DNA from: Clostridium sp. BJN0013
GTDB lineage: Bacteria; Bacillota; Clostridia; Clostridiales; Clostridiaceae
DNA length: 64,000 bases
Assembly (NCBI RefSeq): GCF_040939125.1
Contig: NZ_CP162495.1
Location: 496,001-560,000 of the forward strand
Direction: 5' to 3'
A model generated the notes under the pieces. It saw only the letters and a list, made by a program, of their open reading frames with translations. It did no database searches and was not told the DNA's origin. Shown one piece after another: positions 5,519 to 36,787 of this stretch (position 1 is the stretch's first letter; each line of letters opens with the position of its first letter). The position numbers and the translations under genes were made by a program.

Positions 5519-5525
5519 AATCAAT

Positions 5526-5609
5526 AAGGTGATGGAGTTCACCATAACCGCAGAAATGCTGATGACTCCTACAAATAACATTCTGTTATTTGTAGGAGTC
5601 ATTTTGTTT
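5526..5609 (+). promoter_or_regulatory. Fluoride riboswitch (crcB motif)
   Basis: GGTGATGGAGTTCACC (5528-5543), then ATAACCGC and GCTGATGACTCCTAC match the conserved fluoride aptamer, including the pseudoknot partners. The 3' arm (5564-5579) doubles as the 5' side of a 16-bp terminator. Binding of fluoride would therefore favour read-through into the two fluoride channel genes downstream, the known logic of this class. Confidence 0.95.
5564..5609 (+). terminator. Riboswitch-controlled terminator
   Basis: A 16-bp perfect stem pairs 5564-5579 with 5585-5600 across a 5-base loop, followed by ATTTTGTTT. The left arm overlaps the conserved GATGACTCCTAC of the aptamer, so folding is mutually exclusive with the ligand-bound form. 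Confidence 0.9.
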
Positions 5610-33768: not shown

Positions 33769-34635
33769 ATGAAAATAAACAGATTGCTGGCAATTATAGT
33801 TATGCTTTTAAATAGAGATAAAATATCTGCTGTAGAGTTATCCCAAAAATTTGAGGTTTCCATAAGAACCATTTACAGGGATATTGATGCAATCAATATG
33901 GCAGGGATTCCCATAGCTTCAAAACAAGGAAATAATGGGGGATTCTATATCTTAGAAAACTATAAAATAAATCATCAATTCCTCACACTGGGGGATATGA
34001 TTTCCATAGTGGAAGCTTTAAAAAATATAAATGGGGTATTAAATAATAAAAATGTAGAAATTGCCATGGAAAAGATGAAGAATATAATACCATCCAATAA
34101 GAAAAGTGAAGTTGACCTGCACTTCAAGCAAGTTTTTATAGATACACTGCCCTGGGGGTTTAAAAAATCTGAAAATGAAAATATTAAATACAAAGTTATA
34201 TATAAAGCACTAAAGGAAAATAAGTGTATAAGTTTTAATTACAGAAATTCAAAAGGAGAATATATTTTAAGAGAGGCGGAACCTGTTACTCTTGTATTTA
34301 AAGGATTTTCCTGGTATATTTTTTCCTTTTGTCTTTTAAAAGGGGATTACAGAATATTTAAACTCACTAGAATGGATGGATTGGAGATTTTAAATAGGGA
34401 AGTTTCAAGGGAAAGAATTTCCTATGGAGAATATATAAACAGTAAAAGTCCGGAAAAAAGTCCTGTAAAACTTTTACTTAAGTTTTCAGAAGAAGTGAGG
34501 TATAGGATACAGGATTATTTCCATGAAGAGGAGATGACATTTCTTGAAGATGGTAGTGTTATAGTAAATACGGAAGTTATAGAAGATGGCTGGGTATATT
34601 CTATGGTGTTGAGTTATGGTGCAACTAAACGGTAG
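33769..34635 (+). CDS. WYL-domain HTH regulator, 5' exon interrupted by an IStron
   Basis: The uninterrupted frame gives 288 residues. It has an HTH_11 domain (ISAVELSQKFEVSIRTIYRD, IDAINMAGIPI) and a WYL domain (VTLVFKGFSWYIFSFCLLKG, YRIFKLTRMDGLEIL) and reaches MVLSYG before reading ATKR and a stop. The last five codons come from the inserted element. The true end of the protein (TEYVEVLAPKHIREIIRKKC...) is in frame at 36698-36787. Joining base 34620 to 36698 gives a complete 313-residue regulator, the normal length. Expression of the full protein would depend on intron splicing. Its ligand and targets are unknown. Confidence 0.9.
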   Translation: MKINRLLAIIVMLLNRDKISAVELSQKFEVSIRTIYRDIDAINMAGIPIASKQGNNGGFYILENYKINHQFLTLGDMISIVEALKNINGVLNNKNVEIAMEKMKNIIPSNKKSEVDLHFKQVFIDTLPWGFKKSENENIKYKVIYKALKENKCISFNYRNSKGEYILREAEPVTLVFKGFSWYIFSFCLLKGDYRIFKLTRMDGLEILNREVSRERISYGEYINSKSPEKSPVKLLLKFSEEVRYRIQDYFHEEEMTFLEDGSVIVNTEVIEDGWVYSMVLSYGATKR

Positions 34636-34659
34636 TTGTAAATGTATAAATAACTGCAA

Positions 34660-35085
34660 TAATATAAAACATTATTTATAGATTTATCAATAAGACGATA
34701 AGCACCCCATGTTCGTAAAGAGCATGGAGTCATAGAGATAGAATCTATGCAAAATTTCTTGAATTGCTGGAATCCCCTAAAGCTAACTAAACTACAACGT
34801 AGGTATGAAATAAAACCAAGCGTGAATGTTACGAAAGTAGAAAAAATTAGTTAGATGGCATAAGGTTAAATCCTAAGTGCTGTAAAAATGGGCAATCAGC
34901 AGCTAAGACCCGAATATAGGGTAAAGTTCAACGACTATCCTGTGATGGGAGTAGGATTAAGCAATCCGAAGTGGGAAATGCCCTTTTGCAAGGGTAATGA
35001 TATAGTCTGAGCTTATGTGAGAGCATAAGAAGTTCATAAGAGAACTGCTTAGTGGCAGCGTACTAAGTGAACAACGTCAAAATTC
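34660..35085 (+). ncRNA. Group I intron catalytic core (IStron, CdISt1-like)
   Basis: Conserved core elements are visible in order: ATTGCTGGAATCCCCTAAAG (P-Q region, about 34764), CAATCAGCAGCTAAGACC (about 34893), GTTCAACGACTATCC (R, about 34926) and GATATAGTCTGA (S, about 34999). Many paired segments (for example GCCCTTTTGCAAGGG) lie between. The core is on the same strand as the host gene, as needed for splicing. The internal guide sequence could not be assigned by eye. Confidence 0.85.
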
Positions 35086-35127
35086 TATTATAAATTTGTT
35101 GAAAAAATAACACCCTGTTTAAGAGCG

Positions 35128-35292
35128 TTAATGTAATCTTTTAATGTTATTTAAAAATGATTCGATAGCTTTATCTAATAATTTTGACATTGGTGTTCCT
35201 GTTTCTTTAGAATAAGCTTTTAGTTTATTCAGTAACTCAGTATTAACTGCATTTGAAAAAGGAGTTCTATTTTTCAAATCTTTGTCAGCCAT
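35128..35292 (-). CDS. Ribbon-helix-helix small protein, divergent from tnpB
   Basis: A 54-residue frame on the minus strand reads MADKDLKNRTPFSNAVNTEL and then LNKLKAYSKETGTPMSKLLD. This is a CopG/Arc-type ribbon-helix-helix: one strand, two helices, and the G-T-P-M-S-K-L-L turn. AGTGATGG precedes its ATG. It starts 93 bases from the tnpB start in the opposite direction, so it could repress a shared promoter region. Similar small RHH genes occur beside tnpB in clostridia. Regulation of TnpB or the intron is inferred. Confidence 0.75.
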   Translation of the reverse strand: MADKDLKNRTPFSNAVNTELLNKLKAYSKETGTPMSKLLDKAIESFLNNIKRLH

Positions 35293-35385
35293 GCCATCAC
35301 TTCAAAAATATTATATAACATTTAAATAGCCTTTGTAAGTAATTGGACATTGGGTATAATAATATTAGAAAGTGAGGTGAAAGAT

Positions 35386-36519
35386 ATGATAAGAGCAATT
35401 AAGATAAGATTAAAACCAACAAAAGAACAAGAAATATTAATGTGGAAATCAATAGGTATAGCCAGATTTGCTTACAATTGGGGTTTAGCAAGACAAGAAG
35501 AAAATTATAAGAAAGCTAGTGAATTCATATCTTGCAGAAAATTGAGGGATGAATTTAATAAGTTGAAGAGTACAGAAGAATTCGCATGGCTAAATGAAAT
35601 AAGCAGTAAAACTATCAATCAAGCGTTTGAAGATTTACAAACAGCTTATAATAATTTCTTTGATGGAATAGCTAAGCATCCTAAATTTAAATCTAAGAAA
35701 AAGTCGAGAAAATCATTTTATGTTAGACACGATGCCGTTAAATTTAAAGATGGCAAGGTTAAAATGGAGAAAATAGGTAAAATTCAATACAAAACTAATT
35801 ATGATATTCCCGATTTACCTAAGTACACTAACCCAAGATGTCATTTTGATGGCCGATACTGGTATTTATCTTTAGGATTTGAACAGGGCGAAAACCAGGC
35901 TGGGTTGAATAAAGATTTAAGTGTAGGAATAGATTTAGGCGTTCATGATTTAGCTATAGTAAATTGTCTGGACAATCCTATAAAAAACATTAATAAATCA
36001 GGTAAAGTTAAGAAATTAAAGAAAAAACTTAAAAGATTACAGAAACAAGTATCAAGGAAGTATGAAGCAAATAAACAAGGACTCCAATTTATCAAGACTA
36101 ATAATATTGTTAAATTGGAAAAGAAGATAGGACTTATACATAGAGAGCTTGGCAATATTAGATTAAACCATATTCATCAAGCTACCAATAAAATAATTAA
36201 GTTAAGACCATATAGGGTAGTTATGGAAGACTTAAATATAACAGGTATGATGAAGAATAAACATCTATCGGAAGCCATACAAGAACAATGCCTATATGAA
36301 TTTATGAGGCAGATTAAATATAAATGCGGGTTTAATGGAATTCAATTTGTTCAAGTTGATAAATTCTACCCATCAAGTAAAACATGTTCTTGTTGTGGAA
36401 GCATAAAGTCAGATTTAAAACTGAAAGATAGAGTTTATGTCTGTCCTGAATGTGGATTAGTTATTGATAGAGACAAAAACGCTTCAATAAATCTTGGTAA
36501 TTATAAATTAGTAGAATAA
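35386..36519 (+). CDS. tnpB: TnpB, RNA-guided endonuclease of the IStron
   Basis: The protein is 377 residues from the ATG at 35386, with GTGAGGTGA just upstream. It has the N-terminal HTH/wedge part (MIRAIKIRLKPTKEQEILMW) and a split RuvC nuclease: Asp in SVGIDLGVHDLAIVN, Glu in RVVMEDLNITGM and Asp in VIDRDKNASINLG. A zinc finger with two CxxC pairs (CSCCGS, CPECG) lies before the last Asp. All catalytic residues are present. TnpB uses an omega RNA from the element's right end to cut empty sites and so preserve the element. A promoter-like TTGTAA-16-TATAAT lies just before it. Confidence 0.95.
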   Translation: MIRAIKIRLKPTKEQEILMWKSIGIARFAYNWGLARQEENYKKASEFISCRKLRDEFNKLKSTEEFAWLNEISSKTINQAFEDLQTAYNNFFDGIAKHPKFKSKKKSRKSFYVRHDAVKFKDGKVKMEKIGKIQYKTNYDIPDLPKYTNPRCHFDGRYWYLSLGFEQGENQAGLNKDLSVGIDLGVHDLAIVNCLDNPIKNINKSGKVKKLKKKLKRLQKQVSRKYEANKQGLQFIKTNNIVKLEKKIGLIHRELGNIRLNHIHQATNKIIKLRPYRVVMEDLNITGMMKNKHLSEAIQEQCLYEFMRQIKYKCGFNGIQFVQVDKFYPSSKTCSCCGSIKSDLKLKDRVYVCPECGLVIDRDKNASINLGNYKLVE

Positions 36520-36697
36520 TCACATGAAAGATACTACTAATGTGTAGGATGAGTTGTATCCGAATTTAAGCTCTGGGAGTGTTATATCAAACGAAAGTAG
36601 TATATCCTTTTAGGATTACAAAATCGGACACTATGAATAGAGAATTAAACAAATTTATATATATTTATACATTTGTATAGATTTTTATAGAATTTTG
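36440..36697 (+). ncRNA. Probable omega RNA / right end of the IStron
   Basis: By analogy with known TnpB systems, the guide RNA scaffold spans the 3' end of tnpB and the right end, with the guide taken from the flank (starting GCAACTGAGTATG). The stretch after the stop codon contains paired segments such as ACTACTAATGTG...GTAGTATATCC and GGATGAGTTGTATCC. This region also contains the 3' splice site, so splicing and guide production would compete. The 5' limit is approximate. Confidence 0.55.
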
Positions 36698-36787
36698 GCA
36701 ACTGAGTATGTGGAAGTGCTTGCCCCAAAACATATAAGAGAAATTATAAGAAAAAAGTGCAAAAAAATAATTGATATGTATAAATAA
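36698..36787 (+). other. 3' exon of the WYL regulator gene
   Basis: The bases read, in the frame set by the 5' exon, ATEYVEVLAPKHIREIIRKK and then CKKIIDMYK, stop. The VEVLAPKHIREII segment is the expected C-terminal end of WYL regulators. It has no start codon or ribosome site of its own. It would be translated only from spliced RNA or after precise loss of the element. Confidence 0.9.

What the first reader, a model, noticed from the sequence alone, without database searches (positions are those of the whole stretch)
33769..36787. IStron interrupts a WYL regulator and should splice to restore it
The WYL gene stops at ATKR, but its expected C-terminus (TEYVEVLAPKHIREII...) lies 2 kb downstream in the matching frame. 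A group I intron core, an RHH gene and tnpB lie between. Joining T34620 to G36698 gives one 313-residue frame. It also satisfies the U-before/G-last rule for group I introns. The exon repeat GCAACT explains the apparent early stop.
Basis: partly seen in the sequence, partly recalled or inferred. Interest (0 to 1): 0.85.

Follow-up and report, generated by a model that had tools for sequence, protein, structure and literature searches.

The report
IStron inside a WYL regulator gene
A mobile element that carries its own self-splicing intron sits inside a bacterial regulator gene; relatives suggest that splicing it out would restore the gene exactly, at a junction a few bases away from the one first proposed, and the element is a variant with an unusual target site.

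Summary
A 2,083-bp IStron (group I intron, antisense RHH gene, tnpB, RAGATH-18 guide RNA) interrupts a WYL/WCX regulator of a Clostridium related to C. tyrobutyricum. GCAACT is not an exon repeat: it belongs to the element's ends at unrelated sites, and 10 of 10 same-genus orthologues covering the site lack the residues A-T there. Three independent insertions have uninterrupted alleles in relatives; in the closest relatives GGTG is followed directly by the right flank. Predicted splice: after G34621, before A36705 (311 residues, not 313). A guide sequence at 34702-34706 (GCACC) pairs with the exon's GGUG. In 27 of 27 distinct IStron left ends the last four exon bases and first intron base pair with the element's own guide, in three classes (GGTG/GCACC, GGAG/GCTCC, G(A/G)GG/GCCTC) whose 3' ends, where found, also differ (CTG, CAG, CGG). 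The published rule for group B IStrons (exon ends in G) fits; the U-before rule does not. The kind is known; the TG class was not met in the papers seen, and only in two species of this genus in the genomes searched. Splicing is predicted, not shown.

The parts
33769..34621 (+). 5' exon of the WYL/WCX regulator gene (codons 1-284 plus first base of codon 285); last four bases GGTG are the target motif
   Evidence: ORF; Pfam HTH_11, WYL, WCX; uninterrupted alleles
34622..36704 (+). whole IStron, 2,083 bp, from CAACTAAACGG to TTTTGGCAACTG; predicted intron with last base G36704. A two-base TG is shared by both junctions, so on sequence alone the DNA boundary may also be 34620-36702 or 34621-36703
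   Evidence: ends shared by copies at other sites; flanks abut in relatives
34622..34638 (+). left-end hairpin CAACTA...TAGTTG, next to the 5' splice site
   Evidence: read from sequence
34702..34706 (+). internal guide sequence GCACC, pairs with GGTG (34618-34621) and C34622 to form P1
   Evidence: 27 of 27 distinct ends pair with own guide
34702..35074 (+). group I intron core, ending at the GAACAA motif (35069-35074)
   Evidence: covariation; motif named in PMC4227781
35078..35088 (+). 5' arm of the AU-rich inverted repeat that encloses the ORFs
   Evidence: perfect 11-base complement of 36687-36697
35128..35292 (-). 54-residue ribbon-helix-helix protein gene, divergent from tnpB; a terminator-like hairpin lies at 35130-35108 on the minus strand (3 such sites in the scanned region, 1.2 expected)
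   Evidence: PF12651 3.8e-15; identical in copy B
35386..36519 (+). tnpB, 377 residues, RNA-guided nuclease family
   Evidence: Pfam; NF040570 4.6e-86; PDB 8iaz 1.1e-68
36571..36644 (+). RAGATH-18 motif, core of the TnpB guide RNA scaffold; scaffold inferred to run to the right end (60 bases more)
   Evidence: Rfam RF03064 74.9 bits; PMC11061315 passages
36687..36697 (+). 3' arm of the inverted repeat
36705..36787 (+). 3' exon of the WYL gene (last two bases of codon 285 and codons 286-311, stop TAA); its first ~20 bases are the predicted guide of this copy's TnpB RNA
   Evidence: frame; same residues in G003 and G004

Best explanation
The element is a group B-like (IS607-type) IStron of a class that targets GGTG. 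It inserted in the WYL gene at a GGTG site. In the RNA, the intron's guide GCACC pairs with the exon's GGUG and the first intron base; GTP cuts after G34621, the freed exon cuts after G36704, and the exons join without a scar, giving a 311-residue regulator like that of the relatives. Translation of unspliced RNA stops at TAG 34633, before the ribozyme core. TnpB with the RAGATH-18 RNA, whose guide is read from the right flank, would cut the empty GGTG site and so favour retention of the element. Shown by sequence: ends, uninterrupted alleles, covarying core, exon/guide pairing, in-phase exon 2, full-length tnpB frame and guide RNA motif. Inferred: that splicing happens, at this exact bond, and that TnpB is active.
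For: Three copies in the genome share both ends at unrelated sites. Uninterrupted alleles for three insertions: WYL gene in 10 of 12 other genomes of the genus (G005 had only a 31-base match, G010 none), nitrogenase-like gene in 8 of 8 loci looked at (of 13 from relatives fetched; the other five matches stop before the site), small unknown gene in 1 of 1. The site of copy C was not tested for an empty allele. The three intragenic copies (A, B, D) lie in the sense orientation, and the relatives' frames show that the flanks abut in frame. Core covariation; copies A, B, C 100% identical (rounded) over 381 core bases. Exon/guide pairing in 27 of 27 distinct ends; 0 of 4 GGTG exons pair fully with the guide of either other class. 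Right ends CTG, CAG, CGG by class. BcISt1 splices after a G in vivo. Exon 1 differs from both G003 and G004 at 13 positions, 9 silent and 4 replacement, with no stop (not polarised with an outgroup).
Against: No RNA data. The position that is U-G in the published group B model (first intron base with the guide's G) is C-G in this copy; copy B has U. The published experiment thus does not cover this state. The choice between 34620, 34621 and 34622 as the start rests on the published rules (intron ends in G, exon ends in G) and on guide pairing, not on the alleles, which fit all three. Only 5 of the 10 WYL relatives carry GGTG itself at the site; the other five differ in the third base of the glycine codon, as do three of the eight loci for copy B.
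Confidence: 0.8

Rival explanations
1. The IStron is there but splices poorly or not at all at this site (C-G instead of U-G at P1), so the cell makes mainly a 288-residue protein lacking the end of the WCX domain.
For: C34622 where copy B has U; C-G at the splice site is expected to be weak in group I introns (recalled, no call).
Against: 11 of 12 distinct AG-class ends and 3 of 4 TG-class ends also have C, so C is the rule in these classes; copies A and D, both with C, sit in frame inside genes (frames of AG-class copies were not tested).
Confidence: 0.15
2. One reading: splicing after T34620 and before G36698, leaving GCAACT (residues A-T) in the product.
For: Satisfies U-before and G-last on paper and keeps the frame.
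Against: No orthologue of the 10 in the genus has A-T there; GCAACT belongs to the element's ends at other sites; T34620 pairs with A34704 in the guide, not with G; BcISt1, a group B IStron, splices after G without scar.
Confidence: 0.04
3. A plain insertion sequence with a decayed intron: the WYL gene is simply broken.
For: tnpA is absent; copy C has lost parts of tnpB; no Rfam group I match.
Against: Core unchanged between copies and covarying with relatives; guide matches the target.
Confidence: 0.03

Closest known systems
Group B IStrons, e.g. BcISt1 and CsISt1 (PMC4227781)
   Same: Group I core, ORFs after a GAACAA-type motif, AU-rich inverted repeat around the ORFs, 5' exon ends in G, IS607-type guide RNA, no target duplication
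   Different: Target GGTG and 3' end CTG instead of GG sites with CGG or an AG site with CAG; C (not U) as first base in this copy; RHH gene; no ORF A
IS607 TnpB with RAGATH-18-derived RNA, e.g. ISFba1 (PMC11061315)
   Same: TnpB followed by RAGATH-18 and about 60 more bases to the right end
   Different: Reported target motifs AGGAG and GAGGG; here the left flank is GGTG; here the guide RNA overlaps the intron's 3' splice site
Group A IStrons, CdISt1 (PMC4227781)
   Same: Group I intron joined to tnpB
   Different: Target T-rich pentamer, 3' end TCAG, IS200/IS605 type

Membership tests
IStron (group I intron fused to an IS) | Group I intron core with conserved structure | tested here: met
   60 of 98 pairs with changes on both sides, 0 of 500 shuffles reach the score; P3/P7 pseudoknot not modelled; no Rfam group I match at E<=1
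IStron (group I intron fused to an IS) | IS ORFs within the intron, after a GAACNA-type motif | tested here: met
   GAACAA 35069-35074, then RHH and tnpB, then the 3' end
IStron (group I intron fused to an IS) | Flanks abut exactly in uninterrupted relatives | tested here: met
   Three of the four sites with both ends (A, B, D); the site of copy C was not tested
IStron (group I intron fused to an IS) | Splices in vivo | not testable with these tools
   no RNA data
Group B IStron | 5' exon ends in G | tested here: met
   Uninterrupted alleles and guide pairing agree with G34621, though the alleles alone leave a two-base ambiguity
Group B IStron | 3' end CGG after GG site (or CAG after AG site) | tested here: not met
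   CTG after TG in 4 of 4 copies with both ends; same logic, different dinucleotide. Filed as a variant
Group B IStron | First intron base U | tested here: not met
   C in this copy; U in copy B
IS607 TnpB with RAGATH-18 | RAGATH-18 RNA downstream of tnpB | tested here: met
   74.9 bits, gathering 44.9
IS607 TnpB with RAGATH-18 | IS607-type TnpB by sequence model | tested here: inconclusive
   NCBIfam IS200_TnpB 256.6 bits and IS607_TnpB 173.3 bits, both under cut-off; generic guided_TnpB passes
IS607 element | Serine transposase TnpA in the element | tested here: not met
   No other ORF of 60 aa or more on the plus strand between 34636 and 35349; no IS607 TnpA match at this place and none over the cut-off in the whole genome

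The most novel reading that the evidence does not exclude
IStrons change target by a concerted switch at three linked places: the recombination dinucleotide at both ends, the TnpB-adjacent motif in the flank, and the intron's guide sequence. The GGTG class is a new state of this switch, and in the GGAG and GGTG classes the group I ribozyme works with a C-G pair where a U-G wobble is otherwise nearly universal.
Probability: 0.5. Interest if true: 0.65.

Novelty: new variant of a known kind. Interest (0 to 1): 0.5.

Why it matters
It explains how an IStron can land at many places with a short motif and still splice: the motif that the transposase and TnpB are thought to need is the same sequence that the intron's guide pairs with. 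The three classes make this testable by swapping flank and guide together. It also corrects a splice prediction that followed the textbook U/G rule, and points to natural introns with C-G at the 5' splice site.

Tried and rejected
Rfam scan at E<=1 for a group I family at the locus: only RAGATH-18. Plasmid search with the whole element: 98 records, none covering 80%. The phage search with the core gave 229 records, 150 of them Staphylococcus phages, used only as a sign of kinship. A viral-contig pattern scan gave 14 stretches; they were not put through the pairing count, and of the 11 that appear one (L195) shows a GG-class right end and the rest were not resolved. The idea, from reading, that the left-end hairpin is itself the exon-recognition helix was dropped when the guide at 34702 was found to vary with the flank. 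Pairing count: 41 loci were given; 5 showed no core motif, 3 no left end, 6 were duplicates of flank, end and guide strings and were dropped, leaving 27. Covariation: 36 loci had the core start, 21 also a core end, 18 distinct; I chose 12 of the 18 by hand and trimmed some tails. Right ends: in the GG class L167, L172, L183 and L194 showed none (some contigs stop short); in the AG class eight loci were compared, six gave an end (CAG), L162 and L163 did not, and five others were not compared. The 80 WYL loci, nearly all outside the genus, were printed but not counted. Structure prediction and fold search were not used. A 2024 Science paper on IStrons and TnpB guide RNAs (PMC11758368) is not held; it was seen here only in reference lists.

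Full report
What is there. The WYL ORF (33769-34635) ends in ATKR and a TAG; Pfam finds HTH_11, WYL and a WCX domain matched only to position 54 of 76. The missing C-terminus reads in phase at 36707-36787. The host is a Clostridium by kinship: the best named relative of the WYL gene is C. tyrobutyricum (78% identity); the genome is one contig of 4.10 Mb.

Where the element ends. The genome holds three copies. Copy A is this one; copy B (98%) interrupts a nitrogenase-component-1-like gene; copy C, with internal deletions, lies between listed ORFs. A relative, G004, has a copy of about 506 bases without ORFs (D, locus L088) inside a small gene of unknown function. All four have GGTG on the left, YAACTAAA as the first element bases and GGCAACTG on the right, at unrelated sites. 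So GCAACT belongs to the element (in copy B the left one reads GTAACT).

Uninterrupted alleles. Five of the 10 have GGTG at the site, five another third base in the glycine codon. The two closest, G003 and G004 (96-97% DNA identity over exon 1), match the 40 bases left of the site exactly and exon 2 but for one silent base. For copy B, 8 loci from relatives (two of them from a second, more distant gene of G003 and G004) run through the site without extra residues; 5 of the 8 have GGTG. For copy D one locus does. A TG shared by both junctions means that 34620-36702, 34621-36703 and 34622-36704 fit the alleles equally.

Why G34621/A36705. Aligning relatives of the core (39 of 206 family genomes have a match) showed three classes. 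Left flank, guide and, where found, right end change together: GGTG / GCACC / CTG (this element), GGAG / GCTCC / CAG, G(A/G)GG / GCCTC / CGG. In all 27 distinct ends the last four exon bases and the first intron base pair with the element's own guide. Exons of the GGTG class pair fully with neither of the other guides (0 of 4 each), those of the GGAG class likewise (0 of 12 each), those of the GG class with the GGTG-class guide in 0 of 11 and with the GGAG-class guide in 2 of 11. The left-end finder required a G before the element and the letters YAAC, but did not look at the guide. This puts P1 at 34618-34622 with 34702-34706 and the intron's last base at G36704. It agrees with the published group B rule: BcISt1 RNA was shown by RT-PCR to splice after a G (PMC4227781; I read sections 14, 15, 16, 18 and the first part of 20, and passages).

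The core. Twelve cores chosen from 18 distinct ones: 98 pairs, 96.9% of cells paired, 60 pairs with changes on both sides, covariation score 0.513 against 0.196 in shuffles and at most 0.103 when the pairing is slid by 1-3 columns. Copies A and B score alike at 100% over 381 bases, copy C nearly so.

The TnpB side. TnpB is a full-length frame and matches guided_TnpB (4.6e-86) and PDB 8iaz (1.1e-68). RAGATH-18 ends 60 bases before the predicted right end, as in the IS607 guide RNAs (about 60 conserved bases after the motif; passages of PMC11061315). IS607 elements recombine between matching dinucleotides and the base after the right end is fixed (passages of PMC10711439 and PMC6188088); a TG on both sides fits. 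There is no tnpA in the element and no IS607 TnpA over the cut-off in the genome, while G004 has three, so the copies may be immobile now or have moved in trans (inference).

What is open. No RNA data were available. In this copy the pair next to the splice site is C-G; the published model has U-G there. C is the rule in the GGAG (11 of 12) and GGTG (3 of 4) classes, U in the GG class (11 of 11). Either these introns do without the wobble or they splice less well. A 2024 Science paper on IStrons and TnpB guide RNAs is not held and could already report the three-way match. Searches 'IStron' (30 of 43 papers listed), 'TnpB/group I intron/IStrons' (20 of 22) and 'IStrons/internal guide sequence/IS607/group I intron/splice site' (10 of 45) showed, by title and start of abstract, no other paper on IStron target classes than PMC4227781; the other listed papers were not read for it.

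Spread of the GGTG class. The exact guide pattern with GCRCCC was found in 2 of 225 order genomes (three places in G000, two in G004) and, with GCACCC in an even draw of 391 class genomes, only in G000 itself (the draw did not include G004). These are exact-match patterns and miss diverged cores.

Noticed in passing
window 35128-35292 (-); L248 2878-3036; L093: A small RHH gene sits head-to-head with tnpB where tnpA is usually found; a relative of it lies in the same arrangement beside a different TnpB with RAGATH-18 in G003, and another in G012 whose neighbours were not examined. A search for the words TnpB and RHH listed two papers, neither read for it.
   Followed up: partly
L086 2171-3460 and after the element: Copy B of the element interrupts a nitrogenase-component-1-like gene; relatives have the uninterrupted gene.
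   Followed up: yes
L088 (G004), about 506 bases: An IStron without any ORF, core 99% identical to this one, inside a gene of unknown function; G003 has the uninterrupted gene.
   Followed up: yes
L107/L209 (G004) and copy C (L087): Both genomes have the left end at the same site (taagaggtg), so this insertion probably predates their split; in G004 about 108 bases of the left end were matched there.
   Followed up: partly
L273 (G004): A divergent IStron-like element with an intron motif, an IS607 tnpA (215-residue open frame), tnpB and RAGATH-18, right end apparently ..GTCAG.
   Followed up: partly
L091, L097 (G007): TnpB elements with RAGATH-18 and right end TTTTGGCAACGG, nearly that of this element but with GG; G007 has no intron core match, and L091 has remains of an IS607 tnpA.
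   Followed up: partly
AG-class loci, e.g. L161, L162, L184: Group I introns with C, not U, as first intron base facing the guide's G.
   Followed up: partly
window 5519-5578 (+): Fluoride riboswitch (RF01734, 61.9 bits).
   Followed up: no
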